This document shows positions 32,814 through 57,101 of a stretch of 64,000 nucleotides of DNA, in pieces. Both the position numbers and the translations under genes were made by a program. Location: positions 62,001-126,000 of the forward strand of contig NZ_AUDO01000001.1 in NCBI RefSeq assembly GCF_000425505.1, read 5' to 3'. Position 1 is the stretch's first letter. Every line of letters starts with the position of its first letter. Below the pieces are notes generated by a model that had not been told where the DNA came from, made no database searches, and saw nothing but the letters and a program-made list of their open reading frames with translations. This stretch comes from Flavobacterium frigidarium DSM 17623. GTDB lineage: Bacteria; Bacteroidota; Bacteroidia; Flavobacteriales; Flavobacteriaceae.

Positions 32814-32888
32814 TTTAGAATGATTAAATTTAAGGCAAAAGTATATGCTTAGTTTTTAAAAACAAATTTTATTTAGAATAAATTTAAA
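32814..32888 (-). promoter_or_regulatory. iron-box-like promoter of the imelysin operon
   Basis: Read on the minus strand: TTTAAA-TTTAT-TCTAAA (32888-32872), then TTTG (32866-32863), exactly 19 bases, then TACTTTTG (32843-32836). A second TCTAAATAA starts at 32819, just before the ATG. The core TCTAAATAAAATTTG matches three other promoters in the window at the same spacing. Confidence 0.8.
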
Positions 32889-33045
32889 TAAAATTTTAGA
32901 TAATTTTTAGATTTACTTAAATATACCGTTTTAACATTTTAGCTTTCAATACATTAGCTATTAAAGCATTACCGTCTAATACTGTTCAGCAAGCCGTATT
33001 TATTTGTAATTAAATTATATAGTAACTTAAAATATTAAGATATTA
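32889..33045. other. AT-rich gap between the divergent iron-locus promoters
   Basis: No gene is seen. It contains another imperfect half-site pair, TTTAGA-TTTAC-TTAAAT at 32906-32922, related to the boxes in the flanking promoters; otherwise nothing recognisable. Confidence 0.5.
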
Positions 33046-33098
33046 TTTAGAAATAATCTAAACAAAATTTGCTTAATAAATATTGAGTCTTATCTTTG
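33046..33098 (+). promoter_or_regulatory. iron-box-like promoter of the DUF4856/imelysin/HTTM/TonB operon
   Basis: A perfect palindrome TTTAGA-AATAA-TCTAAA (33046-33062), then TTTG (33068-33071), 19 bases, then TATCTTTG (33091-33098). This is a full-consensus Bacteroidota promoter with the operator touching the -33 element. Confidence 0.85.
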
Positions 33099-33132
33099 CG
33101 CAAATTATTTTTATTTAATCTTAATAACCAAC

Positions 33133-34356
33133 ATGAAATATTCTAAACTAATTTTCACATCAGCTATTATTGCTTCATTAGTATCAACATCATGCTCGAA
33201 TGACAATGATGATCAAGCAACAAATTACAGCATTCCTACAAACTATAATTTTGAAAGAAACAATGCTTCGACTGTTGAATTTTCAGGACAAACGAATCGT
33301 TTACTAATGTTAGAAGAAATGGGGAACGTAATCAAAGTAGCCGCTACAAATGGTACCGTTGCCGATCTTACGTTGTTAAGCAACATGTATTCAAATACAA
33401 ACAATCCTTTTACAAATTCTACCTTAAATATTTCTGGAAAACAGTTGAAAGATAAAACTGCTGCTTCAAAAGATTATTTCGAATTAAATCTAGGTGGTGG
33501 AAGTATCACTGAAAAAACTACTGTTCAAGCCTTTTTTGAAAATCAATTAATACTAGCAAACCAAGCAAGTTTAGCTGGTAATGCTTCTGCTGGCGTTGCA
33601 GGAGTATATCTTGATGGTTCAAGTGCAAGATTGTTTGCAGCTAACGGTTTAGAGCCACAACAAGTTCTTTTAAAAGGAATGATGGGTGCTGGATTTTTAG
33701 ACCAAGTAGTCAATAATTACTTAAGCAAAAATAAATTAGACGAAGGAAGTAATAGAACTAATAACTCGAATAAAATTGTAGAAACCAGCAAATCATACAC
33801 TACTATGGAACATGCTTGGGATGAGGCATACGGTTACATCTACGGTGGTGATGACTTGACAGCTTCGCCGGCAGTTGTAAAATACTGGAGTAGTTACATC
33901 AATCAGGTCGATGCTGATGCTGATTTCAATACACTTAAAAATGATATAGACTTAGCTTTTCGTACTGGTAGAGCCGCTATAGTTGCAAATGATTATGCAA
34001 CTCGTGATGCTCAAATTGATATCATTAAATCTAAATTAGCATTAGTTCCAGCTGTTAGAGCAGTTTACTACTTACAAGAAGGAAAAGCAAAGTTAGTTAC
34101 AGATAATGGAGCAAAAGCGTTTCACGCATTGTCTGAAGCTTACGGATTTATTATTTCATTACGTTACACAAACAAGCCTGGAACTGATAGTCCTTACTTT
34201 TCAAAATCAGAGATAGATACCATGTTAGCTACAATGGTTAGTGGACAAAATGGTCTATGGGACATTGACACATTAGGAACAAAACTAGATGCACTTTCTT
34301 TACAAATAGCTACCAAATTTAACTTTACAGTAGCTCAAGCTACAACAGTAAATTAA
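33133..34356 (+). CDS. DUF4856 domain-containing lipoprotein
   Basis: A 407-residue lipoprotein (Cys 21, STSC). Family phrases: NYNFERNNASTVEFSGQTNRL, EHAWDEAYGYIYGGDD, AFRTGRAAIVANDYATRD and FHALSEAYGFIISLRYT. The body is predicted helical, and the acid/His-containing EHAWDEAYGY segment recalls imelysin-type metal sites, though GxHxxE is absent. DUF4856 function is unknown, but the gene is flanked by imelysins and a TonB receptor under an iron-box-like promoter, so a role in surface metal capture is inferred. First gene of the plus-strand operon. Confidence 0.88.
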   Translation: MKYSKLIFTSAIIASLVSTSCSNDNDDQATNYSIPTNYNFERNNASTVEFSGQTNRLLMLEEMGNVIKVAATNGTVADLTLLSNMYSNTNNPFTNSTLNISGKQLKDKTAASKDYFELNLGGGSITEKTTVQAFFENQLILANQASLAGNASAGVAGVYLDGSSARLFAANGLEPQQVLLKGMMGAGFLDQVVNNYLSKNKLDEGSNRTNNSNKIVETSKSYTTMEHAWDEAYGYIYGGDDLTASPAVVKYWSSYINQVDADADFNTLKNDIDLAFRTGRAAIVANDYATRDAQIDIIKSKLALVPAVRAVYYLQEGKAKLVTDNGAKAFHALSEAYGFIISLRYTNKPGTDSPYFSKSEIDTMLATMVSGQNGLWDIDTLGTKLDALSLQIATKFNFTVAQATTVN

Positions 34357-34399
34357 TTTAGAATAAATACAGATAAGTACAATTGGTTTTGTATTTTTG
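34357..34399 (+). promoter_or_regulatory. possible internal promoter before the second imelysin
   Basis: TATTTTTG at 34392-34399 matches the -7 element. Upstream TTTAGA-ATAAA-TACAGA (34357-34373) is a half-conserved box, and there is no TTTG at the -33 place, so this is weaker than the other iron-locus promoters. Confidence 0.4.
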
Positions 34400-34416
34400 C
34401 AAAAAAAGAAGATAAA

Positions 34417-35541
34417 ATGAAAAAGAAATTATTAATATTTTTTGGTGTAATCGCCACTGTAGTAGCTTGTTCATCAAGTGATGATAGCGGAAGCGAATCA
34501 ACTGGCGGAAGCAATTTTGACAGAACAGCTCTTTTGACAAACTGGGCAGATAACATTATTATTCCAAGCTTTACAAACTACCAGTCAAAAATTCAAGCTT
34601 TGAATGCTAGTATCACTGTTTTTAATACAACTACTACCGAAGCAAATCTTGTAAATGTGAGAACTTCGTGGTTAGAGGCATATAAAGCGTATCAATATGT
34701 AGCTATCTATAATTTTGGTAAATCAGAGGAAATTAATCTTAAAGAAAGTGCTAATACTTATCCTTCGAATACAGTTGGAATACAAAGTAATATCACTGCT
34801 GGTAACTACAATTTAAGTTTGATTTCGCAATTTGACAAGCAAGGTTTTCCTGCTTTAGATTATATGATTAATGGTTTAGGAACCACAGATGCAGCAATCG
34901 TTACTTTTTACACAACTAATACAAATGCTGCAAAATACAAAAGGTATTTAACTGACCTTACTGCACGTTTGCAAACTAGCGCTGACGCAGTGGTTACTGA
35001 TTGGAATTCATCATACAGAGCAACATATATTGCTAACAACGGCGTATCAGTTACTTCATCAGTAAATATCACAACAAACAATTTTGTTAAAAACTTGGAA
35101 AAAGATGTTCGCTCAGGTAAAATAGGAATTCCTGCTGGAGTTTTCTCAGGCGGAACCTTATTCCCTGATAAAGTTGAAGCTTTTTACAAAAACGATGTTT
35201 CTAGAGATTTATTGAATACAGCTGTACAAGCATCTAAAGATTTCTTTAACGGAAAAAAATTCAATGGTACTTCTACTGGTGCTGGATTCCAGTCTTATTT
35301 AGATTATGTAAATGCTACCCGTTCTGGTCAAAAATTAAGTACGATCATAAATACTCAATATGATGCAATTTTGACTTCAAATGCAACATTGAGTACTAGT
35401 TTTTCTAAGCAGATTACTACTGATAATACTAAGATGATTACTGCATATGATGTGTTACAGCAAAATGTTATCTACACAAAATTAGATATGATGCAAGCTC
35501 TAGATATTACAATTGACTACGTTGATGGTGATGGAGATTAA
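34417..35541 (+). CDS. imelysin-family lipoprotein with a variant metal motif
   Basis: A 374-residue lipoprotein (Cys 18, VVAC) followed by a Ser/Asp/Gly spacer. Imelysin features: NWADNIIIPSFTNYQSKIQAL, VRTSWLEAYKAYQYVAIY, and late FLEKDVRSG-like FVKNLEKDVRSGKIGIPAG. Where family members have GxHxxE this protein has FDKQGFPALDYMI, so the canonical His and Glu are missing. It resembles a second imelysin clade seen beside DUF4856 genes. It lies 60 bases after the DUF4856 gene and 47 before the HTTM gene. Metal binding is uncertain because of the changed motif. Confidence 0.88.
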   Translation: MKKKLLIFFGVIATVVACSSSDDSGSESTGGSNFDRTALLTNWADNIIIPSFTNYQSKIQALNASITVFNTTTTEANLVNVRTSWLEAYKAYQYVAIYNFGKSEEINLKESANTYPSNTVGIQSNITAGNYNLSLISQFDKQGFPALDYMINGLGTTDAAIVTFYTTNTNAAKYKRYLTDLTARLQTSADAVVTDWNSSYRATYIANNGVSVTSSVNITTNNFVKNLEKDVRSGKIGIPAGVFSGGTLFPDKVEAFYKNDVSRDLLNTAVQASKDFFNGKKFNGTSTGAGFQSYLDYVNATRSGQKLSTIINTQYDAILTSNATLSTSFSKQITTDNTKMITAYDVLQQNVIYTKLDMMQALDITIDYVDGDGD

Positions 35542-35588
35542 TTAAATCTGACTATCAAAACAGATTTACAAATAGCATCTTACTCTCA

Positions 35589-36947
35589 ATGATACAAAAT
35601 TATTTAAAACAACATAGTTCAGCCGCGACGCTAGCCTTTTATAGGCTAGCGTTTGGTTTAATGATGCTATTGAGTTTGATCCGTTTTGCCAGTTATGGCT
35701 GGATTAAAAAGTTTTATATCACCCCTGAATTCCACTTTACTTACTATGGTTTTGAATGGGTCAAACCTATTGGCAACTATACCTATCTCTTGTTTGTCAT
35801 TGCTGGACTTGCGGCTTTTTTTGTCGCTATAGGGTACAAATACAAATGGGCCATCCTAACTTTTTTTTTGAGTTTTACTTACATTGAGTTAATGGATAAA
35901 ACGACCTATTTAAACCATTACTATTTTATTACACTTATCAGTTTTACTTTTTTATTCCTACCTGCAAATTGCTATTATTCAGTTGATGCATATAAAGATG
36001 AAAAATTAAGATTCGAAAAAATTCCGTCCTGGAATATTGATATTCTCAAGTTACTGCTTGCGCTGGTTTATTTTTATGCAGGCTTAGCCAAAATAAATTC
36101 TGATTGGCTTATAGAGGCAATGCCTCTCAAAATTTGGTTGCCTAATAATTCAAACCTACCTTTAATAGGTAGCTTTTTAAATGAGAATTGGGTTCATTAT
36201 GCATTTAGCTGGACAGGAATGATTTATGATCTTGCAATTGTATTTTTACTACTTTATAAAAGAACGAGACTATTTGGTTTTATTTTAGTTGTGGTGTTCC
36301 ACATTTTAACTAAAATATTATTCCCTATAGGAGTTTTTCCTTATGTAATGATTATCAGTTCATTAATCTTTTTTGATACCAGCTTTCATAAAAAAGTATT
36401 AAATCTCATTTCAAGAATAGCTTCAAGAAGCATCACTATTTTCGAAAACGGAAAGGAAAAACAAGTCAATCCTACGATGTTATATAAAGCTAAAATTAAT
36501 TTTATTAGTGTTTTTGTATTGTTTCAGTTGCTATTCCCGTTTAGGTACGTTTGTTACCCTAACGAACTCTTTTGGACCGAGGAAGGTTTTCGCTTTTCAT
36601 GGCGTGTTATGCTTATGGAAAAGGCAGGATATACCACTTTTACAGTTATAGATGCTATCACCAAAAAAGAAATTAGAGTAAATAATAGCCATTTCTTGAC
36701 GAAATTTCAAGAAAAACAAATGGCATTTCAGCCCGATTTCATTTTAGAGTATGCCCATTACTTACACAATTACTACCTCAATCAAGGCATTAATGCACCC
36801 GAAGTTTATGTAGAAAGCTACGTAGCTTTAAACGGAAGATTAAGCCAAAAATATATAGATTCAAAAATAAATTTAGCTAACGAAAATGAAAGTTTCAAAC
36901 ACAAAACCTGGATACTCCCTTTTAATGACACTATTAAAGGATTTTAA
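35589..36947 (+). CDS. HTTM (vitamin-K-dependent gamma-carboxylase-like) membrane protein
   Basis: A 452-residue protein with about eight membrane segments in the first 300 residues and a soluble C-terminal part. HTTM-type features: LAFYRLAFGLMMLLSLIRFA at the start, the conserved LVYFYAGLAKINSDWL segment, and MLYKAKINFISVFVLFQLLFP before the last segment. The family is named from gamma-glutamyl carboxylase, but bacterial members' chemistry is unknown. It sits between an imelysin and a TonB receptor; its stop overlaps the receptor's start by about 23 bases, so translation is coupled. It is the only inner-membrane candidate in the locus. Confidence 0.88.
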   Translation: MIQNYLKQHSSAATLAFYRLAFGLMMLLSLIRFASYGWIKKFYITPEFHFTYYGFEWVKPIGNYTYLLFVIAGLAAFFVAIGYKYKWAILTFFLSFTYIELMDKTTYLNHYYFITLISFTFLFLPANCYYSVDAYKDEKLRFEKIPSWNIDILKLLLALVYFYAGLAKINSDWLIEAMPLKIWLPNNSNLPLIGSFLNENWVHYAFSWTGMIYDLAIVFLLLYKRTRLFGFILVVVFHILTKILFPIGVFPYVMIISSLIFFDTSFHKKVLNLISRIASRSITIFENGKEKQVNPTMLYKAKINFISVFVLFQLLFPFRYVCYPNELFWTEEGFRFSWRVMLMEKAGYTTFTVIDAITKKEIRVNNSHFLTKFQEKQMAFQPDFILEYAHYLHNYYLNQGINAPEVYVESYVALNGRLSQKYIDSKINLANENESFKHKTWILPFNDTIKGF

Positions 36948-39351
36948 ACTCGCTCTTTTCTTGCTGTTGCCATTACTAAGCTTTGCTCAAAATAAAATTT
37001 CGGGAACGGTTACAGATGGAAACGGAAAAAAATTAGCTGGTGTTGAAGTATACAACAAGTCTACCAATACCAAAATTTTTACCGACACAGCTGGAGTATT
37101 CGAAATAAACGAAAAAACATCAGCAAGTTTTGATTTTGTTTTTTTTAAAGAAGGTTACAGTATTGTAGAGCAAAGCGGTATCTCAACGGGCAGCGCTATC
37201 AAAATCGTTTTGAATAAAATTAATAATCTAACAGAGGTAATTATTAAGAAGCAAAACCAAAAACTATCTGCGATATATAAGTTAAAAGACATTGAAGAAA
37301 CAGCAATATACGCAGGTAAAAAAACAGAGGTTGTCAACATAAGTAAATTAACGGCTAATAAAGCAACGAATAATGCCCGCCAAGTATTTGCTCAGGTTGT
37401 GGGTTTGACCATTAACGAAAGTTCAGATGGTGGTTTGCAATTAAGCATTGGTGGTCGCGGATTAGACCCTAACCGAACAGCTAACTTCAATACTCGCCAG
37501 AATGGTTATGACATTAGTGCTGACGTTCTAGGCTATCCTGAAAGTTACTATGCTACACCTACTGAAGCATTAGAAGAAATCCAGATTATACGTGGTGCTG
37601 CGTCATTGCAATATGGTACACAGTTTGGAGGTTTGATTAATTTTAAGATAAAAACACCTACTACAAAGCCTTTTGAATTTATCACCCGAAATACTTTAGG
37701 CTCTTATGGCTTGTATACTAATTTCACTTCATTAAGCGGTACAAACGGTAAATTTAGTTACTACACTTTCTTCAATTATAAAAAAGGAGATGGATATAGG
37801 CCCAATTCAGATTTTGAGAGTAAAAATTATTTTGCAAACTTAAATTACAAATTTAACGAAAAAACATCTTTACATTTTGATTATACCTATTATAACTACC
37901 TAGCACAGCAAGCTGGAGGTTTAACAGATGCTATGTTTGAAGAGAATCCTAGACAAAGTAATCGCACTAGAAACTGGTTTGCAGTTGACTGGAATTTATT
38001 TGCATTGCGTTTAAAGCATAAATTTAATGAGGACAATACCTTCTCATTGCAATTGTTTGGATTAGACGCAAGTAGAAAAGCACTAGGATTTAGAGACAAT
38101 CGAATCACCACACCAGATCCTATGGGAGAGCGTGACTTAATCCTTGGAGATTTTGTGAACTGGGGTGCCGAAGCCCGTTATCTAAAACAATATTATATTG
38201 GTAAACAAAAAAGTGCTTTTTTAATTGGAGCAAAATATTATCAATCTAATAATACTCAACAACAGGGTCCTGGAAGCTCAGGTAGCGATGCTAATTTTAA
38301 TATCGCAATCGACGAATTTCCATTCTATAAAAACCAGTCTGATTTTACATTTCCAAATTTGAATTTAGCTCTTTTTGGTGAGAACATCTTTAAGCTTAGC
38401 AATACTTTTACTATTACGCCTGGCTTCAGAATAGAGAAAATCAAAACACAAGCTGATGGAAGTTATAGAGTGATTAATCGTGACTTAGCTAACAATGTTA
38501 TTTTTGACGAAACTCAAACTGAGAACAATATAAAAGATCGAAATCTACTACTACTTGGAGTTGGATTAAGCTATAAACCTAAAAACGGAATTGAATTTTA
38601 CGGAAATGTATCTCAAAATTATCGTTCAGTAACTTTTAGTGATATTCGTACAGTAAATCCAAGTCAACAAATTGATGAAAATATTACTGACGAAAAAGGA
38701 TACACTTCTGATATTGGTGTAAGAGGTCATATTAATAACAAACTAACATTTGACACAAGCATTTTCGGACTCTATTACAATGATAAAATTGGTGATTACG
38801 ACAGTACGAACTCTTCTAATCAAATAGTAAAAATTAGAGCCAATACAGGTACTGCACTAACCTATGGTTTTGAAACCTTACTAGACTGGAATATTGCTAA
38901 AACATACTTTGAGTACAATGAAAATTTCAGTTGGAATGTATTTACAAATTCTGCCATAACAGGTTCAAGTTATTTAAAATCTGATATCCCTACTATTAAA
39001 AAGGGATACAAAGTAGAATTTGTTCCGTTATATAATCTCAAAACAGGAACAAGTGTTGGATATAAAAACTTCCTTTCAAGTGTTCAGTTTACCTATATCT
39101 CATCGCAATTGTCAAGCGCAAGTAGCAACAGTTCAAATAATGTTTCAACTGGAATTTCAGGAACAATCCCTTCTTATTACGTAGCAGATATTTCTTGCTC
39201 TTACAAATGGAAAAACTGGAAATTAGAAACCGGTGTAACCAATTTTACAAACAACAGTTATTTTACTCGTAGAGCTACTGGCTATCCAGGACCTGGAATT
39301 ATACCATCAGACAAAAGAACATTTTACACCACTTTGGAATTTTTATTCTAA
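36925..39351 (+). CDS. TonB-dependent outer-membrane receptor of the imelysin/HTTM locus
   Basis: About 808 residues from the ATG at 36925, which directly opens a signal peptide (MTLLKDFKLALFLLLPLL, ending SFAQ). An ATG 13 codons upstream is possible but puts hydrophilic residues before it. Residues about 22-105 are a carboxypeptidase-like domain (ISGTVTDGNGKKLAGVEVYN). The plug follows (ARQVFAQVVGLTINESSDGG, IQIIRGAASLQYGTQFGGLINF), then a 22-strand-type barrel closing with TFYTTLEFLF. It overlaps the HTTM gene. Ligand unknown; an iron complex is likely from the context. Confidence 0.92.
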   Translation: MTLLKDFKLALFLLLPLLSFAQNKISGTVTDGNGKKLAGVEVYNKSTNTKIFTDTAGVFEINEKTSASFDFVFFKEGYSIVEQSGISTGSAIKIVLNKINNLTEVIIKKQNQKLSAIYKLKDIEETAIYAGKKTEVVNISKLTANKATNNARQVFAQVVGLTINESSDGGLQLSIGGRGLDPNRTANFNTRQNGYDISADVLGYPESYYATPTEALEEIQIIRGAASLQYGTQFGGLINFKIKTPTTKPFEFITRNTLGSYGLYTNFTSLSGTNGKFSYYTFFNYKKGDGYRPNSDFESKNYFANLNYKFNEKTSLHFDYTYYNYLAQQAGGLTDAMFEENPRQSNRTRNWFAVDWNLFALRLKHKFNEDNTFSLQLFGLDASRKALGFRDNRITTPDPMGERDLILGDFVNWGAEARYLKQYYIGKQKSAFLIGAKYYQSNNTQQQGPGSSGSDANFNIAIDEFPFYKNQSDFTFPNLNLALFGENIFKLSNTFTITPGFRIEKIKTQADGSYRVINRDLANNVIFDETQTENNIKDRNLLLLGVGLSYKPKNGIEFYGNVSQNYRSVTFSDIRTVNPSQQIDENITDEKGYTSDIGVRGHINNKLTFDTSIFGLYYNDKIGDYDSTNSSNQIVKIRANTGTALTYGFETLLDWNIAKTYFEYNENFSWNVFTNSAITGSSYLKSDIPTIKKGYKVEFVPLYNLKTGTSVGYKNFLSSVQFTYISSQLSSASSNSSNNVSTGISGTIPSYYVADISCSYKWKNWKLETGVTNFTNNSYFTRRATGYPGPGIIPSDKRTFYTTLEFLF

Positions 39352-39372
39352 AGTAAAAATAACACAATTTTC

Positions 39373-39417
39373 AAACCCCTTTAAAACTAAGCACTCTTAG
39401 TTTTAAAGGGGTTTTTC
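39373..39417. terminator. strong terminator of the iron-locus operon
   Basis: A perfect 19-bp stem beginning AAACCCCTTTAAAACTAAG with a CACT loop, followed by T5. It follows the TonB receptor stop by about 21 bases. Confidence 0.93.
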
Positions 39418-39420
39418 TTT

Positions 39421-39655
39421 GCATAATACAGAAGTCTTTACTGCCGCAGTCGGGCGTCGAATGTTTGAAAAACACATAAAAAGAAAAGCTGTTTGATCCC
39501 CCGCGGCGGAGTGTTCTTTTATTTTAGTGGTCTAAAACCAGTTCGACCGACGAGAACGTACTGACTTGATTTTTTTGTTTCTTTTTTTATCAAGAAAAAA
39601 AGAAAAACGCTTTATAGATAACTAAACGTTATACGAATTAAAAAAACACGAAGAA
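39421..39655. repeat. intergenic stretch with GC-rich patches, repeat-like
   Basis: No gene is seen. Patches such as CGCAGTCGGGCGTCG and CCCCCGCGGCGGAG stand out against the AT-rich background, followed by a T-rich run and an A-rich run (TTTCTTTTTTTATCAAG, AAGAAAAAAAGAAA) that can pair. It resembles dispersed intergenic elements of Flavobacterium, by memory only. Confidence 0.45.
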
Positions 39656-40462
39656 TTATTTCCCTAAATTCGAATGTAACATTTTGAAATAAACAAAAGC
39701 TTTTAACAATCTGCTACCATACCAAGAAAACATCTCCCCATCAACAAGCACAGTTTGTGTATTTTCAGTGTAATTACTTATCTCATATCCATCCTCTTTT
39801 TTAAAAGGATAAGGTTCCGAAGATAGAAATATATAATCTGGATCCCCTTCAGCAACGATATCTTCAATCGCTACTTCGGGATAGCGTCCCTTCGTGCTGT
39901 AAATATTTTCAAAATGATTTAGCTTTAATAATTCATTTATAAAATTATTAGAACCGGCTACCATATATGGCTTTTTCCATATAAAATAAGCTACCCTCTT
40001 AACTGGAATATCATTAATAAATTTTTTGAAATCACTTAAAGCAAAGGTTAATTTGTCGTTCCATTTTCTAGCTTCTGTTCTTGCATTAAAAAGCTGACCA
40101 AAATCCTTTATCATTTGGAAATTATCTTCTACAGTAACAATATCAGTAACCCATACTGGACAAATTTCGCGCAAGCGCTCCACCATTTCTAGTGTGTTCT
40201 CCTCTTTATTACAAATAATAATGTCGGGCTGTAGCTCTTTTATTTTTCGATAATTAACTTTTTTAGTACCACCAACACTTTTTATAGTTGACTTAAAATG
40301 ATAAGGATGCACACAAAATTTGGTAATCCCCACAATCTTTGCCTCCAGACCTAAATCATAAAGTAACTCTGTTTGCGAAGGCACAAGAGAGATGATTCGT
40401 TGAGGCGAGGCTTCAAAAATATGTTCCGTACCTATTTGATCTTTTAAAGAAAGTGTTTTCAA
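39656..40462 (-). CDS. BtuF-like substrate-binding protein without a signal peptide
   Basis: A 268-residue protein of the helical-backbone metal/cobalamin-receptor fold: QRIISLVPSQTELLYDLGL, GITKFCVHPYHFK, IKELQPDIIICNKEEN, WVTDIVTVEDNFQMIKDFG, MVAGSNNFINELL, YPEVAIEDIVAEGDPDYIFLSSEP. This matches the BtuF/FepB-type binding domain, but the first residues (MKTLSLKDQIGTEHIFEA) are hydrophilic, so it is not obviously exported. No permease or ATPase gene is adjacent. Cobalamin would fit with the B12-dependent mutase elsewhere in the window, but this link is only a guess. Confidence 0.82.
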   Translation of the reverse strand: MKTLSLKDQIGTEHIFEASPQRIISLVPSQTELLYDLGLEAKIVGITKFCVHPYHFKSTIKSVGGTKKVNYRKIKELQPDIIICNKEENTLEMVERLREICPVWVTDIVTVEDNFQMIKDFGQLFNARTEARKWNDKLTFALSDFKKFINDIPVKRVAYFIWKKPYMVAGSNNFINELLKLNHFENIYSTKGRYPEVAIEDIVAEGDPDYIFLSSEPYPFKKEDGYEISNYTENTQTVLVDGEMFSWYGSRLLKAFVYFKMLHSNLGK

Positions 40463-40926
40463 GTTTTTTTATTTAAAGTAAGAAAATTAGTTTCAAGTTA
40501 GAGAATTAGTTTCAAGTTTTCCTTGTTTAAAGTTTAAGGTTAAACTGTGCAGTGGTAGATAATTAGTTTCAAGTTTTCCTTGTTTAAAGTTTAAAGTTAG
40601 ACTGTGCAGTGCTTGCAAAATGTCTAGAATCCGAATTTGTGTTTAAATATGTTGTGGTTGAAAAAATAATATTTTACTTATATATATCGCTTGAGATAAT
40701 CAAAGTCAATTTTAAACAATTTTTTAACCAAGTAAAGCCAACCTTAAACCTTAAACTCTAAACCTGAAACATTTTACGCACAATATGCATCAACCTTAAA
40801 CCTGAAACTTTAAACCTGAAACTTTAAACCCGAAACAATTTAAGCACAATCAGCATCAACTTTAAACCTGAAACAATTTAAGCACAATCAGCATCAACCT
40901 TAAACTTTAAACAAATCACAGACTAT
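40463..40926. repeat. low-complexity repeat region built from TTTAAAC-type words
   Basis: No gene is seen. The right side repeats CTTTAAACCTGAAAC and AATTTAAGCACAATCAGCATCAA several times. The left side repeats ATTAGTTTCAAGTTTTCC, TTGTTTAAAGTTTAA and GACTGTGCAGTG-like words in the opposite sense. The two sides are roughly inverse complements, so the stretch could fold as a large imperfect hairpin. Confidence 0.7.
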
Positions 40927-41751: not shown

Positions 41752-41825
41752 GTTGTCTATTTAAAAGCGAATTTTACAAAATGTATCGCAAATTTCGCTA
41801 CGTTCTTTTATATACAATTGTTTTT

Positions 41826-41920: not shown

Positions 41921-41925
41921 AATAT

Positions 41926-48034: not shown

Positions 48035-48062
48035 AATTAATTAACTTTTCTAACATAAAATA

Positions 48063-51344: not shown

Positions 51345-51459
51345 GTTTTTCAATAAAATTGCATGGGATTCATTTAATAATCAGATTGCAGATACTTAAA
51401 CAAATTGAATTTATTTTAGCTAATTTTGTCACAGTCAAACCAAAATCAAATAAGCCATT

Positions 51460-51948
51460 ATGATTAAAAAAATTACTTTACTCTTACTTATTTTACCATT
51501 TATAGCCTGCAACAAATCAGGGAAAGACAGCAATAATGAAAAAGAAAAAATGAAAGCTGCTCGTTTTCTCATTGGAAACTGGGAAATGAGTACACAAGAC
51601 GGTCACTTGAAAGAATTATGGGATAAGCAGAATGACAGTGTTTACAATGGACAGTCCTATTTTATTAAAGCTAAAGACACTATCCATTCTGAAAAAATTC
51701 AATTAAAACAAAAAGGAGATATTTTAACTTATACTACAATTATCAAAGGGCAGAACAATGATAAACCTATATCGTTTATGCTGATAGATTATCAGGAAAA
51801 CAAAGTTGTATTTGAAAATAAAGCTAATGATTATCCCCAGAAAATTATCTATTCGCAAAATCAGAAAGGGAGTCTAGTAACCGAATTATCTGGTATCCAA
51901 TCTGGAAAAGCTAGTACAGAGAAATACGAAATGAAGAAAATTAAATAA
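51460..51948 (+). CDS. lipoprotein with a DUF6265-like (lipocalin-type) region
   Basis: A 162-residue lipoprotein (Cys about 17, FIAC). The mature domain starts RFLIGNWEMSTQDGHLKELW, then LKQKGDILTYTTIIKG, then VFENKANDYPQKIIYSQ. The GxW start, strand pattern and NDYPQKI phrase match small lipocalin-like proteins annotated as DUF6265; that name is from memory. Upstream TAATTTTG at 51421-51428 fits a -7 element. A terminator follows. It separates topB from the TonB receptor. Confidence 0.75.
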   Translation: MIKKITLLLLILPFIACNKSGKDSNNEKEKMKAARFLIGNWEMSTQDGHLKELWDKQNDSVYNGQSYFIKAKDTIHSEKIQLKQKGDILTYTTIIKGQNNDKPISFMLIDYQENKVVFENKANDYPQKIIYSQNQKGSLVTELSGIQSGKASTEKYEMKKIK

Positions 51949-51967
51949 CCTACAAATATATTAATCT

Positions 51968-51996
51968 AAAACCTTGCTGACCGCAAGGTTTTTTTT
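51968..51996 (+). terminator. terminator after the small lipoprotein
   Basis: AAACCTTGC/GCAAGGTTT stem with a TGACC loop, followed by T6. Confidence 0.92.
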
Positions 51997-52037
51997 ATGA
52001 CTATAAACCCCTAAAATAGAGATTCCTAAAAATTTTA

Positions 52038-52112
52038 TTTTTATTAAATCTAAATAAGTTTTGTTAAAGTTAAATTAAAATATACATTTGCATTATTCTT
52101 AACGATTCTAAA
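52038..52112 (+). promoter_or_regulatory. iron-box-like promoter of the TonB receptor/PepSY operon
   Basis: TTTTTA-TTAAA-TCTAAA (52038-52054), then TTTG (52060-52063), 19 bases, then TACATTTG (52083-52090). A second TCTAAATAA lies at 52107, in the leader. The core TCTAAATAAGTTTTG matches the promoters at 32.87, 33.06 and 57.03 kb. Confidence 0.82.
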
Positions 52113-52134
52113 TAATATTTAATTTTAATTTATC

Positions 52135-54510
52135 ATGTTCTATATTTATAAAAAGATACAAACTTATTTTCTTGCTATTTGTCTATGCCTCTTTTGTATA
52201 CAATTTGCAACAGCTCAAAAGCATGAAACAGCAATTAAGGGTACCATTTTTAGTAATAATCAAACGCCCGCTGAAGGAGTTACTATCACTCTAAAAGGGA
52301 AAAACAGAACAACAGTAACTAACAATGATGGTTATTATGAAATAAACGATTTAAGTCCAGAAACGTATACACTAATTGTTTCTCTAGTGGGTAGCCAGGA
52401 TCATCAGCAACAGGTAATTGTCGAAAAAAATAAAATTATAACAGTCGATATCACGTTATCTTTATCTAACACTGAATTAAATCAAGTTGTGATTTTGAGT
52501 AATAAAAGTGCTTTTAAAACCAATCGTGTTTCATCGTCGCTACGTTTAAATTCACCTATAAATGAAATTCCACAAAATATTCAGGTGATAACAGGTAAGT
52601 TGATCAATGACCAACAAATATTTAATATGCTTGAGGGTGTTACTCGTAATGTAAGTGGAGCGACACGTGTTGAACATTGGGACAACTATGCCAACATAAC
52701 TATGCGTGGAAGCCAAGTTGCAGCCTTTAGAAATGGTATGAATATAAGTTCAACGTGGGGACCACTTACCGAGGACATGAGTATGGTAGAAAGAATCGAG
52801 TTTGTAAAAGGCCCAGCAGGATTCATGCTTGCCAACGGAAATCCGAGTGGATTTTACAATGTTGTCACCAAAAAACCTAGCGGACGTAATAAAGGAGAAG
52901 CAAGTTTAACCTACGGAAGTTTTGATATGTTTCGAGCTACACTAGATCTCGATGGCAAATTGACAAAAGACGGTAAATTGTTGTATCGCTTTAATGCAAT
53001 GGCAGAAAAAAAGAAAAGCTATCGTGATTTTGACTTTAATGACAGGTACACAATCGCACCGGTATTGAAGTATTTATTTTCTGATAAAACTGCAGTTACG
53101 TTAGAGTACACACAACAATATTCGAAAGTAAATGCCATAGGAAGCAACTATTCTTTTTCGAAAGAAGGATATGCTGATTTATCCCGAAATTTCACTACTT
53201 CAGAAGCGAATTTAGATCCTACTGATATGACAGAGCGCAATATCTTAGCGATACTCGATCATAAAATAAACGACCGCTGGAAATTTACAGCACAAGGTTC
53301 GTATTTAAACTACCAACAAGAAGGCATGTCTTTATGGCCAACAGGTTTTGATCCTGAAAATACAGCAATCTTGAAAAGAGGTGCCTCGGTTTGGGATGTT
53401 TTAGGTAAAATTTATGTTGGACAAGCTTTTATAAATGGAGAAGTTCAAACAGGAGCAATCAGTCATAAAATTCTATCTGGTCTTGATTTAAGCGATAAAA
53501 CATTCTACCATGATTTCTCACAAACAGCGCCACTACCTGATTTAGACATCTATAATCCGGTGTATGGTAACCTTGCTGTTTCTCCTATTTTTGATCGAAG
53601 TCAGCGTCTTGAAGATCGTGGTGTTAAATATCAAAACAACTACAAAGCTTTGTATGTTCAAGACGAACTTGGCTTTTTTGAAAACACTTTACGATTAACA
53701 TTAGCAGGGAGATACACATTATTGAAGGCCGCTAATTATTATTCAGGAGCCACATCAAATAAGCGATTCACACCAAGAGTTGGATTGAGTTATTCAATAA
53801 ATAAAAACACAGCTGCTTATTTTGTAAGCGACCAATCTTTTAATGAAAATTATGGTACAGACTGGGAAGGAAAGTCTTTTAATCCTGAAACCGGTGGTAA
53901 CATAGAATTTGGTTTAAAACGAGATTGGCTTAATGGAAAATGGAATTCAGTTGTTTCTGTATATCAAATTACAAAGAACAATGTACTTACAAATGATGCA
54001 GAACATTCTACTGGGGCGATGCAATACAGCAGAGAAAGCGGGCAACAACGTACAAAAGGGCTTGAAGTTGATATAAGAGGTGAAGTTTTTAAAAACTTAG
54101 ATTTGATTGTGAATTATGCCTTTACTGAAGGTAAAACAACTAAAGATACCGATGCATCAGTTATAGGAACACAAGTTCCCGGAACAACAAAGCATATTCA
54201 CAATGCATGGTTAAATTATAAGGTTGATAGAGGAACTTTAAACGGTGTTGGTTTATCATTAGGATACCAGTACCAAGTGAAAAGAGCTCCTTGGTATATT
54301 TCAACGGGAGACACTCCAGGATTACCAGATTACTTTAGACTTGATGGAGGAATCTCCTACCAAAAAAATAAGGTTACTGTGAATGTAACCGTAAATAATA
54401 TATTAGATAAATATTTATACTCTGGAGGTTATTACGGTTATAGTGACATGTATTACTGGCAGACGGAAGCCGGAACAAATTTTCGTTTATCGGTAGGGTA
54501 CAAATTTTGA
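52135..54510 (+). CDS. TonB-dependent siderophore-type receptor
   Basis: A 791-residue outer-membrane receptor. Signal peptide ends FATAQ (about residue 28). A carboxypeptidase-like domain spans about 32-115 (IKGTIFSNNQTPAEGVTITL). The plug follows: NEIPQNIQVITGKLINDQ, LEGVTRNVSGATRVEHWDNYA, RIEFVKGPAGFMLANGNPSG, NVVTKKPSG. The barrel closes with FRLSVGYKF. These features are those of the FhuA/FpvA/FoxA class for ferric siderophores. It is followed by a PepSY reductase-type gene, a common pairing. Transcribed from an iron-box-like promoter. Confidence 0.93.
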   Translation: MFYIYKKIQTYFLAICLCLFCIQFATAQKHETAIKGTIFSNNQTPAEGVTITLKGKNRTTVTNNDGYYEINDLSPETYTLIVSLVGSQDHQQQVIVEKNKIITVDITLSLSNTELNQVVILSNKSAFKTNRVSSSLRLNSPINEIPQNIQVITGKLINDQQIFNMLEGVTRNVSGATRVEHWDNYANITMRGSQVAAFRNGMNISSTWGPLTEDMSMVERIEFVKGPAGFMLANGNPSGFYNVVTKKPSGRNKGEASLTYGSFDMFRATLDLDGKLTKDGKLLYRFNAMAEKKKSYRDFDFNDRYTIAPVLKYLFSDKTAVTLEYTQQYSKVNAIGSNYSFSKEGYADLSRNFTTSEANLDPTDMTERNILAILDHKINDRWKFTAQGSYLNYQQEGMSLWPTGFDPENTAILKRGASVWDVLGKIYVGQAFINGEVQTGAISHKILSGLDLSDKTFYHDFSQTAPLPDLDIYNPVYGNLAVSPIFDRSQRLEDRGVKYQNNYKALYVQDELGFFENTLRLTLAGRYTLLKAANYYSGATSNKRFTPRVGLSYSINKNTAAYFVSDQSFNENYGTDWEGKSFNPETGGNIEFGLKRDWLNGKWNSVVSVYQITKNNVLTNDAEHSTGAMQYSRESGQQRTKGLEVDIRGEVFKNLDLIVNYAFTEGKTTKDTDASVIGTQVPGTTKHIHNAWLNYKVDRGTLNGVGLSLGYQYQVKRAPWYISTGDTPGLPDYFRLDGGISYQKNKVTVNVTVNNILDKYLYSGGYYGYSDMYYWQTEAGTNFRLSVGYKF

Positions 54511-54538
54511 GTTAGTTGATTTTGTTTATTTGTTTCAC

Positions 54539-54574
54539 TAAACTCCTCATCTAGCATCTAGAGGGGGAGTTTTA
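54539..54574 (+). terminator. attenuator-like hairpin between the receptor and PepSY genes
   Basis: AAACTCC/GGAGTTT arms enclose a region that also contains CTAG twice. With TTTTATT after it, it can partly stop transcription before the PepSY gene. Confidence 0.55.
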
Positions 54575-54584
54575 TTCTTTTAAG

Positions 54585-55721
54585 ATGAAAAATAAAAATT
54601 TAAAAAAAATAGTAGGCATACTACATTTGTGGTTAGGATTACCATCAGGAATTATAGTATTTATTATCGCAACTACGGGCTGTGTATATGCTTTTCAGCA
54701 AGAAATTTCTAATTATACGGAGGACTACCGTTTTGTCAAGGAAGAAAACAATCTTTTTTTACCACCAAGTCAATTGCTGCCTATAGCTCAACGGGAATTA
54801 CCTACAAAAAACATTCATGCCTTGAAATACAATGGTAAAAATGAGGCCGTTGAAGCTATTTTCTATCACTATCAACCTACATATTATTATACCACATATC
54901 TTAATCCTTACACAGGAAACGTTCTAAAAACAGTAAACAATGAAACAGGTTTTTTTCATTTTATATTAGACGGACATTTCTATCTGTGGTTGCCTCAAGA
55001 TATAGGCCAAGTAGTTGTAGCAGTTGCTACATTAATTTTCTTACTGTTGATTATTTCAGGGTTTATTTTATGGTACCCTAAAAATAAAAGTGCCGCTAAA
55101 CAACGCTTCTCTTTCAACTGGAAAAAAGGGATGAAATGGAAACGGAAAAATTACGATATGCATAATGTCACTGGTTTTTACGTTTTAAGCATAGCCCTGA
55201 TCTTTGCAATAACTGGACTGGTGTGGGGATTTCAATGGTTTGCGTATTCTTATTACACCGTTCTTGGAGGAGAAAAATCGCTATTGTACATAGAACCTAT
55301 TTCTCAAAAAAAAGCAGATACTAAATTCGAGTTAGTTCCATTAGATGCGATTTGGTTAAAAATGCTAAAGGAATACCCTAAAGCAGAATCTATAGAAATT
55401 CATCCACCAGAGACAGATAGCGCCGCAATAGCAGCCAATGCTAATGACAATAAAAACACGTATCATACTGCTGATTATCGCTACTTTGACCAATATACTT
55501 TACAGGAGGTTGAAGTGAACCATCTTTGGGGTCGTACAAAAAATGATAAAATTGCAGACCGCCTTTTCAAAATGAATTACGATATACATACTGGAGGAAT
55601 CTTCGGCTTAGCCGGGAAGATTTTTGCATTCTTAATAAGTTTATTAATCGCTAGTCTACCTGTTACTGGAACATTGATTTGGTGGGGAAGGAAAAAGAAA
55701 AGCAGACGTCAATATCAATAG
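54585..55721 (+). CDS. PepSY-associated membrane protein (PiuB/FoxB-type, probable ferric-siderophore reductase)
   Basis: A 378-residue inner-membrane protein with four main helices and a large periplasmic loop. Family features: ILHLWLGLPSGIIVFIIATTGCVYAFQQEI at the start, the His-containing FHFILDGHFYLWLP, DMHNVTGFYVLSIALIFAITGLVW, and MNYDIHTGGIFGLAGKIFAFL. The paired histidines in the helices suit heme binding. PiuB/FoxB-class proteins reduce ferric siderophores in the periplasm or aid their import. It follows the TonB receptor by 74 bases, so the two likely work together. Start ATG at 54585. Confidence 0.9.
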   Translation: MKNKNLKKIVGILHLWLGLPSGIIVFIIATTGCVYAFQQEISNYTEDYRFVKEENNLFLPPSQLLPIAQRELPTKNIHALKYNGKNEAVEAIFYHYQPTYYYTTYLNPYTGNVLKTVNNETGFFHFILDGHFYLWLPQDIGQVVVAVATLIFLLLIISGFILWYPKNKSAAKQRFSFNWKKGMKWKRKNYDMHNVTGFYVLSIALIFAITGLVWGFQWFAYSYYTVLGGEKSLLYIEPISQKKADTKFELVPLDAIWLKMLKEYPKAESIEIHPPETDSAAIAANANDNKNTYHTADYRYFDQYTLQEVEVNHLWGRTKNDKIADRLFKMNYDIHTGGIFGLAGKIFAFLISLLIASLPVTGTLIWWGRKKKSRRQYQ

Positions 55722-55742
55722 AAGTAGTTTGATTTAAAAACA

Positions 55743-55775
55743 AAAAAGCCTTTACTTTAACAGTAAAGGCTTTAA
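55743..55775. terminator. terminator between the PepSY and ferritin genes
   Basis: AAAGCCTTTACT/AGTAAAGGCTTT stem with a TTAAC loop, flanked by A and T runs, between convergent genes. Confidence 0.92.
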
Positions 55776-55791
55776 TATATTATCATTTTAA

Positions 55792-56322
55792 TTATATTTC
55801 TGTAGCTCCTATTTTGGCAATTTGCTTGTCCAATTCAAATTTACCTGCAGCTGTATTTTCGTCAATTAATTCAAAGAATTCTAATGCTCTTCGTGCATTA
55901 ATTTCTTCTTCTCTTTGTTCTCTTACGTACCACATCATGAATTCCTCAGTTGCATAATCGTTTTCTAATCTACATTTTGCAATAATTTTATTTACAGCAT
56001 GTGTAACTGCGATTTCGTTTTGTAATGCGATTTCAAAAACTTCTTTAAAAGAAGAAAATTCTTGTTGTACTTCGTTTACTGTAGGAGTAATTGCTATCCC
56101 TCCCATATCAGTAATATATTTAAAAACTTTCAAGAAATGACTTCTTTCTTCTTCTGCTTGGTCGTACATGTAACCCGCAGTATTTTCAAAACCATTTCTA
56201 TCTAACCATGATGCCATTGCTAAATATTTAGCTGATGCATCACTTTCTATTTTTGATTGTAAGTTTAATAATTTTTCTATTCCTTCTTGAAGTGAAGTAT
56301 GTGTGCGTAGTAAATCTTTCAT
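55792..56322 (-). CDS. ferritin (FtnA type)
   Basis: A 176-residue iron-storage protein from the ATG at 56322 (MKDLLRTHTSLQEGIEKLLN). Four-helix ferritin: YLAMASWLDRNGFENTAGYMYDQ, ferroxidase ExxH as E59-R-S-H62, then FKEVFEIALQNEIAV (Glu near 93-97) and REQREEEIN (Gln 137, Glu 140). No heme-ligand Met pattern of bacterioferritin is evident. A start 9 codons upstream is possible but lies close to the -7 element at 56347-56354. It stores iron imported by the neighbouring receptors. Confidence 0.93.
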   Translation of the reverse strand: MKDLLRTHTSLQEGIEKLLNLQSKIESDASAKYLAMASWLDRNGFENTAGYMYDQAEEERSHFLKVFKYITDMGGIAITPTVNEVQQEFSSFKEVFEIALQNEIAVTHAVNKIIAKCRLENDYATEEFMMWYVREQREEEINARRALEFFELIDENTAAGKFELDKQIAKIGATEI

Positions 56323-56346
56323 AGCGCTTAATTTTTGATGATAAAT

Positions 56347-56418
56347 CAAAGATACGGCTATTGTTATCGTAAGAAGCTAAAGAATTCTTAATTAGCTAAC
56401 ATTTGAATTAAATCTAAA
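56347..56418 (-). promoter_or_regulatory. ferritin promoter with a nearby iron-box-like site
   Basis: On the minus strand TATCTTTG (56354-56347) is the -7 element. The box TTTGAA-TTAAA-TCTAAA (56402-56418, plus sense) lies farther upstream than in the four uptake promoters: its near edge is about 48 bases from the -7 start, suggesting a different mode of control. No -33 TTTG at 19 bases. Confidence 0.6.
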
Positions 56419-56440
56419 TAAATAAAAAACTGCTAAATAC

Positions 56441-56797
56441 TTAGTAAACAACCGTGTCGCTTAAGACCTCGAGTACCATTGAGTTTAATACAAGGGTGAA
56501 TTTAGTACCATTTAGCAAATCGCGAAGTTGCACGATTTCGCATATAGTAAGCTCTTTTGAAAAGTTTCTTTTAGTAGCTTCAATTAATTTGTAATCTCCT
56601 TCATCAGAGAGATTGTAAAGCATATCTAATACGTTTACACTATTCACCATTCTTTGAAAAATCAAAAAGTCTCTAATTTTATACGAAGTAATTATTCCGT
56701 CAAAATTAACGACAATAGTATTGGTCAGTTCACATTGGTAACTGTACCCTTTTTTATTTTCGAACAATAAATCATTACTTTGATTGATGCACTCCAT
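56441..56797 (-). CDS. small protein of unknown function upstream of ferritin
   Basis: About 118 residues from the ATG at 56797 (MECINQSNDLLFENKKGYSY). An ATG 8 codons upstream lies at the very end of a -7 element (TAAATTTG, 56826-56819) and would give no leader, so I chose the inner one. The pattern CxxxxxLLFENKKGYSYQC, a short FDGIITSYKIRDFLIFQR and a last helical LRDLLNG resemble DUF6686-type proteins; this is weak. Soluble, no export signal. Lies between ferritin and a TonB receptor, with TCTAAATAA boxes on both sides, so an iron-linked role is plausible. Confidence 0.7.
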   Translation of the reverse strand: MECINQSNDLLFENKKGYSYQCELTNTIVVNFDGIITSYKIRDFLIFQRMVNSVNVLDMLYNLSDEGDYKLIEATKRNFSKELTICEIVQLRDLLNGTKFTLVLNSMVLEVLSDTVVY

Positions 56798-57101
56798 GTT
56801 TTCAATATAAATATGCTGCAAATTTAAACACTTATTTGCTTACATACAAGCTTAATTGATATTTAGTCTAAATAAGTATGTTAAAGTTTTTTAAAATTAA
56901 AGGATGCTATATATCACGGAATATATGCCAGTAATATGCTTAAAACCGCTAATAGCATTTCAAATTATCCTTACCTAATTCCTATTAATAAGTTCATAAA
57001 TAGCTTGTTAAAAATATTATGTTTAATTATTCTAAATAAGCTTTGTACAATCCAAAAAAGCGCGTACTTTTGCGCAGTTATTTTAAATAAATCTAAATAA
57101 A
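56798..57101. other. intergenic region between the divergent small gene and TonB receptor
   Basis: These 304 bases hold a -7 element for the minus gene (56826-56819), a palindrome TATTTAGTCTAAATA at 56860-56874, and the full iron-box-like promoter for the receptor at 57020-57097. The middle (56880-57010) shows nothing recognisable. Confidence 0.7.
57020..57097 (+). promoter_or_regulatory. iron-box-like promoter of the second siderophore receptor
   Basis: TCTAAA (57031-57036), TTTG (57042-57045), 19 bases, TACTTTTG (57065-57072); core TCTAAATAAGCTTTG. A second TCTAAATAA at 57092 abuts the ATG. The left half of the palindrome is poorly kept. Confidence 0.82.

What the first reader, a model, noticed from the sequence alone, without database searches (positions are those of the whole stretch)
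32814..57097. Four promoters in two distant iron blocks share one rigid operator-promoter layout
Seen: TCTAAATAAAATTTG (32877, minus), TCTAAACAAAATTTG (33057), TCTAAATAAGTTTTG (52049) and TCTAAATAAGCTTTG (57031). In all four the TTTG is followed after exactly 19 bases by TACTTTTG, TATCTTTG, TACATTTG or TACTTTTG. The distance from TCTAAA to the -7 element is 34 bases every time. Known: TTTG/TAnnTTTG is the Bacteroidota housekeeping promoter. Inference: TCTAAA, with TTTAGA as the other half (perfect at 33046-33062), is the site of a metal-responsive repressor, perhaps DtxR- or Fur-type, fixed in place against the -33 element. Extra TCTAAATAA words lie 24-27 bases past the -7 start in three of the four leaders.
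Basis: partly seen in the sequence, partly recalled or inferred. Interest (0 to 1): 0.85.

Follow-up and report, generated by a model that had tools for sequence, protein, structure and literature searches.

The report
Two-sided Fur clamp on promoters
Four promoters of predicted iron-uptake genes in this Flavobacterium-like genome each sit between two copies of the same DNA word, where the iron sensor Fur is predicted to bind on both sides and switch the genes off when iron is plentiful, and the same two-sided layout recurs in many Flavobacteriaceae.

Summary
The four sites are exactly as described, occur nowhere else in the 3.63-Mb genome, and are absent from shuffles and from the reversed-pattern control. 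TCTAAA is the strong half of a 23-bp inverted repeat (TTATTTANANTNANTCTAAATAA) ending 2 bp (in some relatives 3 bp) before the -33 TTTG. By name, 68 of the 80 hit titles shown are Flavobacteriaceae. The motif matches the published Riemerella anatipestifer Fur box, and genes of the same kinds as one window block are Fur-regulated there. DtxR is unlikely: five of six genus genomes with no DtxR match above cut-off keep the layout. Best reading: iron-loaded Fur occludes both flanks of the core promoter; binding and regulation here are untested. Fur control of iron uptake is ordinary, and two Fur boxes around a start site are known from staphylococcal isrR. My literature searches showed no fixed, lineage-wide, polar two-operator bracket on the -33/-7 promoter: a new variant of a known kind.

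The parts
32869..32891 (-). Promoter A, upstream Fur-type operator (TTATTTAAATTTATTCTAAATAA), ends 2 bp before -33
   Evidence: 0 mismatches to consensus; score 30.1 with a matrix trained on other genomes
32863..32866 (-). Promoter A, -33 element TTTG
32836..32843 (-). Promoter A, -7 element TACTTTTG
32811..32833 (-). Promoter A, downstream operator over the predicted start and leader (weakest of the eight)
   Evidence: 2 mismatches; score 13.0, 8.3 symmetric
31625..32803 (-). Gene under promoter A: imelysin (Peptidase_M75)
   Evidence: PF09375, E=1.9e-63
33043..33065 (+). Promoter B, upstream operator, near-perfect palindrome (TTATTTAGAAATAATCTAAACAA)
   Evidence: score 21.6
33068..33071 (+). 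Promoter B, -33 element TTTG
33091..33098 (+). Promoter B, -7 element TATCTTTG
33105..33127 (+).
   Evidence: 1 mismatch; score 22.8
33133..34356 (+). Gene under promoter B: DUF4856 protein, first of a DUF4856-imelysin-HTTM/VKGC-TonB receptor block
   Evidence: PF16148, E=1.9e-132; weak FEA1-related lipoprotein match E=2.3e-4, below cut-off
34417..39351 (+). Rest of the block: imelysin (34417-35541), HTTM/vitamin K-dependent gamma-carboxylase (35589-36947), TonB receptor (36886-39351)
   Evidence: Pfam; same gene kinds as R. anatipestifer RAYM_09779-09794, listed under Fur regulation (PMC5609570)
52035..52057 (+). Promoter C, upstream operator (TTATTTTTATTAAATCTAAATAA)
   Evidence: 0 mismatches; score 27.1
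52060..52063 (+). Promoter C, -33 element TTTG
52083..52090 (+). Promoter C, -7 element TACATTTG
52093..52115 (+). Promoter C, downstream operator (TTATTCTTAACGATTCTAAATAA)
   Evidence: 2 mismatches; score 11.7
52135..54510 (+). Gene under promoter C: TonB-dependent siderophore receptor; a PepSY_TM gene (54585-55721) follows
   Evidence: TIGR01783 258.9 bits, above its cut-off; PF03929 for 54585-55721
57017..57039 (+). Promoter D, upstream operator (TTATGTTTAATTATTCTAAATAA)
   Evidence: 1 mismatch; score 21.1
57042..57045 (+). Promoter D, -33 element TTTG
57065..57072 (+). Promoter D, -7 element TACTTTTG
57078..57100 (+). Promoter D, downstream operator, ends 1 bp before the ATG
   Evidence: 0 mismatches; score 27.3
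57102..59327 (+). Gene under promoter D: TonB-dependent siderophore receptor
   Evidence: TIGR01783 313 bits, above its cut-off

Best explanation
Each of the four promoters carries two copies of a 23-bp Fur-box-like inverted repeat, one ending 2 bp before the -33 element and one over the predicted transcription start and leader, and iron-loaded Fur would likely bind both and block RNA polymerase when iron is plentiful. Shown: the two operators, their place relative to the -33/-7 elements, their polarity (the strong half TCTAAATAA points downstream), their recurrence in relatives, the genes behind them, and one FUR-family gene in this genome. Inferred: that the protein is Fur, that TTTG and TAnnTTTG are the working promoter, that the start site lies just after the -7 element, and that both copies are occupied. 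Likely working: the upstream dimer covers the -33 element and the DNA above it; the downstream dimer covers the first ~25 transcribed bases. Iron starvation empties both and the genes come on together. Two full sites would give a tighter off state than one.
For: 1) The second operator is not chance. With a matrix trained only on upstream operators of 110 promoters from named genomes (right half fixed by the query), 131 of 141 leaders score 10 or more, against 2 of 2,820 mononucleotide-shuffled leaders. With the symmetrised matrix, 133 of 141 score 8 or more, against 3 of 21 control promoters, and each of those 3 is another promoter or operator of this kind. 2) The same matrix finds 11 sites in the 64-kb window, all inside the two iron blocks; ten synthetic windows give 0 or 1 each. 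3) Register. In a search asking only for promoter plus downstream TCTAAATAA, 22 of the 30 loci read (of 32 hits) had an upstream operator, 17 ending 2 bp and 5 ending 3 bp before TTTG, none elsewhere in the range scanned (-6 to +24). In the gap histogram of the 150 listed rows (list cut by the tool), 32 lie at 5 bp and 13 at 6 bp; of the 40 with TCTAAAYAA, 35 lie there. 4) Fur identity. The motif's 19-bp core scores 25.5 for the published R. anatipestifer consensus ATTTAGAATTATTCTAAAT, and 9 of the 11 boxes in that paper's Table 5 beat at least 99.9% of their shuffles; the E. coli-type box scores -22.9. That paper reports EMSA binding for four promoters including hmuR, and PMC10986502 reports metal-dependent EMSA on rhuB, whose box is ATTTAGAATTATCCTAAAT. 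5) R. anatipestifer RAYM_09779/09784/09789/09794 (TonB receptor, gamma-carboxylase, imelysin, hypothetical protein) stand in the table of the section on Fur regulation under iron restriction (column heads not seen); the window has the same gene kinds behind promoter B. 6) One FUR-family gene in this genome, FUR matches in 61 of 61 genus genomes. 7) Precedent that such a pair works: staphylococcal isrR (PMC9410917, passages).
Against: Nothing here shows binding, start sites or iron response in this organism. The downstream copies of A and C are weak (8.3 and 11.7). 8 of 141 leaders lack the second copy. 8 of 30 downstream-first loci lack the upstream copy, among them three that look like TonB receptors, so one copy can suffice. 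In isrR, mutating the downstream box alone had no effect. 33 of 61 genus genomes have no hit to the pattern, so it is common but not general. One of the four R. anatipestifer promoters shifted by Fur (sprT, RAYM_03924) has a listed box that does not fit this motif (score -15.8), and a second listed box (RAYM_03869) does not either. PMC7976709 states that the E. coli-type box is present in two Fur-regulated promoters of R. anatipestifer, which I could not check. The fur gene itself has no such site in the 3.4 kb read.
Confidence: 0.78

Rival explanations
1. The site belongs to the DtxR-family regulator (HTH + metal-binding + FeoA domains) encoded beside an apparent feoB; Fur is not involved.
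For: This genome has one such gene with all three domains, and 55 of 61 genus genomes have one above cut-off. The inverted repeat is of a size that DtxR-type proteins also use (recalled).
Against: Of the six genus genomes with no PF02742 match above cut-off, five (G014, G028, G035, G043, G050) carry TCTAAATAA-N2-TTTG promoters of this kind; they are drafts 83-93% complete (G028 7% contaminated; G014 has a weak match below cut-off), so all five being assembly gaps is unlikely but not excluded. The motif matches boxes in promoters shifted by purified Fur in R. anatipestifer. No site of 8 or more lies in the 3.2 kb around the DtxR gene.
Confidence: 0.07
2. Only the upstream operator is regulatory. 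The leader copy is kept because an A-rich stretch before the start codon helps translation in this phylum.
For: In D the copy ends 1 bp before ATG, and TAAATAA is A-rich. In isrR the downstream box alone gave no effect when mutated.
Against: The leader copies conserve the whole 23 bp including the T-rich far half (TTATTT 80-97% per position, A at -3 97%), which a translation signal does not need. The copy is not tied to the start codon: it ends right at the ATG in L085 but 36 bp before it in L153 (counted). Several loci have a leader copy only.
Confidence: 0.12
3. The upstream site is an activator site, or doubles as an A/T-rich UP element; iron starvation switches the genes on through activation rather than relief of repression.
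For: A site ending 2-3 bp above the -33 element is where an activator touching sigma or alpha would sit (general knowledge); the register is nearly fixed.
Against: A second copy over the start and leader is a repressor position. In R. anatipestifer iron-uptake genes rise in the fur mutant (rhuB, PMC10986502; B739_0103 and B739_0173, PMC7976709).
Confidence: 0.05
4. The leader repeat acts in RNA as a hairpin.
For: It is an inverted repeat in the transcript.
Against: Pairs next to the loop do not form: position +4 is C in 99%, while its partner position -4 is A or T in 95% of leader copies. The same sequence, with the same broken pairs, sits above the promoter where it is not transcribed. No RNA folding was run.
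Confidence: 0.02

Closest known systems
Riemerella anatipestifer Fur regulon (PMC5609570: passages and section 18; PMC7976709 and PMC10986502: passages)
   Same: Same inverted repeat (ATTTAGAATTATTCTAAAT), same order of bacteria, EMSA with purified Fur, and genes of the same kinds as the window block under Fur control. Listed box-to-ATG distances of 67 and 78 bp (RAYM_01847, hmuR) fit the upstream copies here (64-79 bp between 19-bp core and ATG, counted from the coordinates).
   Different: One box per gene is listed; in the parts read no fixed distance to the -33/-7 elements and no second copy is described. The abstract names the E. coli-type box GATAATGATAATCATTATC, while its section 18 and discussion give ATTTAGAATTATTCTAAAT.
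Staphylococcus aureus isrR promoter (PMC9410917, passages read)
   Same: Two Fur boxes, one in the promoter and one immediately downstream of the start site; both contribute to repression, the upstream one being epistatic.
   Different: A single small-RNA gene in Bacillota, so another promoter type (recalled); here the bracket is repeated over several gene families, mostly of Flavobacteriaceae, in one register.
EAEC sci1 promoter (PMC3145626, passages read)
   Same: Two Fur boxes at one promoter; Fur blocks RNA polymerase.
   Different: One box lies upstream of -35 and one overlaps -10, none in the leader; coupled to DNA methylation.
Bacteroidota housekeeping promoter (-33 and -7 elements; Chen et al. 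2007 as cited inside PMC5609570; motif letters recalled)
   Same: Both elements and the 19-bp spacing are present in all four.
   Different: The operators are extra: 18 of 21 control leaders had none, and the other 3 are related cases.

Membership tests
Fur-box operator (flavobacterial type) | 19-bp inverted repeat like ATTTAGAATTATTCTAAAT | tested here: met
   The eight window operators match 14-17 of 19 positions; motif scores 25.5 on the published consensus
Fur-box operator (flavobacterial type) | A FUR-family regulator in the genome | tested here: met
   One PF01475 gene, E=4.8e-27; best-matching solved chains are named Fur
Fur-box operator (flavobacterial type) | Sites in front of iron-acquisition genes | tested here: met
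   Imelysin, DUF4856 block, two siderophore-type TonB receptors; 113 of 137 promoters elsewhere precede TonB receptors, DUF4856, imelysins or binding proteins
Fur-box operator (flavobacterial type) | Metal-dependent binding of purified Fur to these sites | not testable with these tools
   Reported for R. anatipestifer promoters only (PMC5609570, PMC7976709, PMC10986502)
Fur-box operator (flavobacterial type) | Derepression without iron or without fur | not testable with these tools
   Published for related genes in R. anatipestifer
Fur-box operator (E. coli type) | Match to GATAATGATAATCATTATC | tested here: not met
   Motif scores -22.9 on that box
DtxR-family operator | Regulator present wherever the site is present | tested here: not met
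   5 of 6 genus genomes lacking PF02742 above cut-off have the layout; drafts, 83-93% complete
DtxR-family operator | Binding by the DtxR homologue | not testable with these tools
Bacteroidota housekeeping promoter | TTTG, 19 bp, TAnnTTTG | tested here: met
   4 of 4
Bacteroidota housekeeping promoter | Transcription starts a few bases after the -7 element | not testable with these tools
   No transcript data
Two-box Fur promoter (isrR type) | One box in the promoter and one just downstream of the start | tested here: met
   By sequence in 4 of 4 window promoters and 133 of 141 promoters in all; start site inferred

The most novel reading that the evidence does not exclude
Flavobacteriaceae use a standard part: a polar, two-operator Fur clamp built around the -33/-7 promoter, with the upstream copy locked 2-3 bp from -33 and the leader copy set 61 or 72-73 bp away, one helical turn apart, so that two Fur units on one face of the DNA act together and trap the polymerase site between them. 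The strong half of each copy may do double duty, as A/T-rich DNA feeding the promoter and as an A-rich translation leader.
Probability: 0.3. Interest if true: 0.68.

Novelty: new variant of a known kind. Interest (0 to 1): 0.5.

Why it matters
Iron control in Bacteroidota is poorly mapped compared with E. coli (general knowledge). A sequence rule this strict (operator, 2 bp, TTTG, 19 bp, TAnnTTTG, then a second operator) would let Fur targets be called from sequence alone in many Flavobacteriaceae, assigns a likely iron role to families without known function such as DUF4856 and a porin-like family, and gives a promoter that should be tightly iron-switched. It also bears on a conflict in print: R. 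anatipestifer papers quote both an E. coli-type box (an abstract, repeated in PMC7976709) and the ATTTAGA type (results of the same paper, PMC10986502); the comparative data side with the second.

Tried and rejected
Exact palindrome TTTAGA-N5-TCTAAA as the motif: 4 places in the genome and 4 in the reversed control, so uninformative alone. A strong left half at the upstream site (TTATTTAGA-N16-TTTG-N19-TAnnTTTG): only 2 hits in 61 genomes, both strong on both sides, so the polarity is real. Gap 6 as a large second class: of 13 rows, 6 are real operators before genes whose first residues look like DUF4856 or imelysin proteins (no Pfam run on them), 6 look by eye like tRNA promoters with a chance TCTAAA (no tRNA finder was run), and 1 has no ORF found. 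The 4 rows at gap 4 read in the same calls showed no leader copy by eye; a gap-4 promoter with one turned up among the controls (L105). Of the 6 hits without TCTAAAYAA, two precede binding-protein genes (L009, L019), one is a coding hit (L035) and three were not read.

Helical phasing: of 131 leader operators scoring 10 or more, spacing is 57-64 in 74 (peak 61), 66-69 in 12 and 70-74 in 45 (peak 72-73), none at 65. After removing near-identical proteins (47 left of 133) there are 32 at 57-63, 6 at 66-68 and 9 at 71-73. The 66-68 group is half a turn off, and the periodicity test is driven largely by the single sharp peak at 61, so phasing is only suggestive. Spacing also goes with gene family, which confounds it.

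Genome-wide list of 23-bp sites with up to 2 mismatches: 42 rows against 21 in the reversed control, so about half of the weak rows may be noise; only sites also supported by the matrix or position are used. Papers: searches listed no paper that I recognised as describing a two-operator layout in Bacteroidota; the library is open-access only, and beyond the listings I read passages of five papers and one section of one of them.


Full report
WHAT IS THERE. None of 100 dinucleotide shuffles of the window produces one. The whole 3.63-Mb genome has only these four, and the reversed pattern none. They precede an imelysin gene (31625-32803), a DUF4856 gene that opens a DUF4856-imelysin-HTTM/gamma-carboxylase-TonB receptor block (33133-39351), and two TonB receptors that pass the TonB-siderophore cut-off (52135-54510 and 57102-59327).

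THE OPERATOR. Reading 110 unique promoters of the same layout from named genomes shows that TCTAAA is part of a 23-bp inverted repeat, consensus TTATTTANANTNANTCTAAATAA, with a right half fixed by the query and a conserved left half (TTATTT 85-96% per position) that was not. It ends 2 bp before TTTG. The polarity is not a search artefact. Asking for the strong half on the left finds 2 promoters in 61 genus genomes, both strong on both sides, whereas 32 of the 38 hits of the right-hand search have TCTAAAYAA. In the leader copies, whose sequence no query fixed, the right half is the better one in 122 of 133, the left in 4, with 7 ties.

THE SECOND OPERATOR. All four window promoters have one: A 32811-32833, B 33105-33127 (missed because it reads TCTTAATAA), C 52093-52115, D 57078-57100. 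Centre-to-centre distances are 58, 62, 58 and 61 bp. A matrix built from upstream copies only scores 131 of 141 leaders at 10 or more, against 2 of 2,820 shuffles. Of 21 control promoters in the same loci, 3 score 8 or more, and all three are related promoters or run into the next operator. Scanned over the window, the symmetrised matrix gives 11 sites, all in the two iron blocks, against 0-1 in synthetic windows.

HOW RIGID. A search that did not ask for an upstream operator (promoter plus TCTAAATAA in the leader) gave 32 hits in 28 of 61 genomes, against 4 reversed hits. Of the 30 loci read, 22 have an upstream copy, 17 ending 2 bp and 5 ending 3 bp before TTTG, nowhere else in the range scanned. 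Eight lack it, three of them before what look like TonB receptors, so single-operator promoters exist. The gap histogram agrees: 32 rows at 5 bp and 13 at 6 bp among 150 listed, other gaps 0-8 each. Six of the 13 gap-6 rows are true members, before genes that look like DUF4856 or imelysin genes. So "exactly 5" holds in this window and "5, sometimes 6" in the genus.

WHERE IT OCCURS. In the genus 28 of 61 genomes match TCTAAA-N5-TTTG-N19-TAnnTTTG, 38 hits against 1 control hit. In a spread over the phylum 14 of 247 genomes have the stricter TCTAAATAARN form: 13 of 27 in the own family, 1 of 34 in the rest of the order and class, 0 of 186 elsewhere, with no control hits. Of the 80 titles shown, 68 are Flavobacteriaceae by my reading of the names; the other 12 are Cloacibacterium, Pedobacter, Spirosoma, Adhaeribacter and MAGs labelled Flavobacteriales, Sphingobacteriaceae, Sphingobacteriales, Bacteroidia, Bacteroidetes or (one) Chlorobiota. 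By clustering and one Pfam-scanned representative per cluster, the 137 promoters outside the window precede TonB receptors (77), DUF4856 or DUF4856-like genes (31), imelysins (3), periplasmic binding proteins (2), a porin-like family (16), MauG (2) and DUF6662 (1), with 4 without an ORF found and 1 coding hit.

WHICH REGULATOR. The genome has one FUR-family gene and one DtxR-family gene. Of 61 genus genomes all have a FUR match (one, G055, only a weak one, and it lacks the layout), while 6 have no DtxR match above cut-off, and 5 of these 6 carry TCTAAATAA promoters of this kind. The published Fur box of R. anatipestifer, ATTTAGAATTATTCTAAAT, is the 19-bp core of this repeat. It scores 25.5 with the matrix, and 9 of the 11 boxes of Table 5 in PMC5609570 beat at least 99.9% of their shuffles; two (RAYM_03869 and RAYM_03924, sprT) do not, although the sprT promoter was among the four that purified Fur shifted. 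The genes RAYM_09779-09794, of the same kinds as in the window block, stand in that paper's table on Fur regulation. The abstract of PMC5609570 and the discussion of PMC7976709 give the E. coli-type box instead, which the motif does not match (score -22.9); PMC7976709 says it is present in two promoters, which I could not check.

HOW IT LIKELY WORKS (inference). With iron, Fur would occupy both copies. The upstream one borders the -33 element, the downstream one covers the predicted start and first ~25 bases. In staphylococcal isrR, the one tested promoter of this design that I found, both boxes contribute and the upstream one dominates (PMC9410917, passages). Without iron both fall empty and the uptake genes rise together. 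Why keep two? A tighter off state is the simplest answer. A direct contact between the two bound units is possible: spacings gather at 61 and 72-73 bp, about one turn apart, but a smaller group at 66-69 bp and the link of spacing with gene family leave this open.

VERDICT. The biology is iron repression by Fur, a known kind. The fixed, polar, two-sided bracket around the Bacteroidota promoter is a variant that I did not find in print in the searches listed.

Noticed in passing
window 56399-56421 (ferritin-like gene 55792-56349, minus): A single Fur-type site lies about 77 bp before the ferritin ATG and 21 bp above the expected -33 position, unlike the repressor positions of the uptake genes; it could be an activating site. 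Its score is modest (12.0).
   Followed up: partly
window 56853-56875 and gene 56441-56821 (minus): A small gene with no Pfam family above cut-off has a Fur-type site (19.0) ending 2 bp before CTTG, with TAAATTTG as -7: nearly the same register, but the strong half faces the other way and no second site of 8 or more was found there.
   Followed up: partly
window 34354-34376: A further Fur-type site (15.3) just before the second imelysin gene (34417) inside the DUF4856 block, overlapping where a -33 element would be.
   Followed up: no
L044 (own genome C3:46719-46777): Another TonB receptor has two operators only 36 bp apart, the first overlapping the -7 element: a different double layout in the same genome.
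   Followed up: partly
L046, L006, L007, L059 (own genome C12, C7, C11, C6): Single Fur-type sites before a 118-aa protein without Pfam family, between an HTH_18 (AraC-type) gene and a glutamyl-tRNA reductase gene, at the start of an aminotransferase class-V (sufS-like) gene, and before a multihaem cytochrome gene.
   Followed up: partly
L087, L133, L136, L152 and 12 further loci: A ~390-aa apparently exported family whose representative has no Pfam match at 0.001 follows the layout in 16 loci, 12 of them at 72-73 bp spacing. At E up to 1, Porin_4 matches 5 of 11 members (best 2.2e-5) and Porin_O_P 2 of 11 (best 4.1e-7). The predicted fold (mean pLDDT 63) resembles porin barrels (best PDB match OmpU, E=2e-13). 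Possibly an iron-linked porin.
   Followed up: yes
PMC5609570, abstract versus section 18: The abstract gives an E. coli-type Fur box while section 18, Table 5 and the discussion give ATTTAGAATTATTCTAAAT; PMC7976709 repeats the abstract's form.
   Followed up: yes
L217, L220, L221 (G052, G015, G042): Large-genome members of the genus have promoters of apparent TonB receptors with the leader operator only.
   Followed up: no
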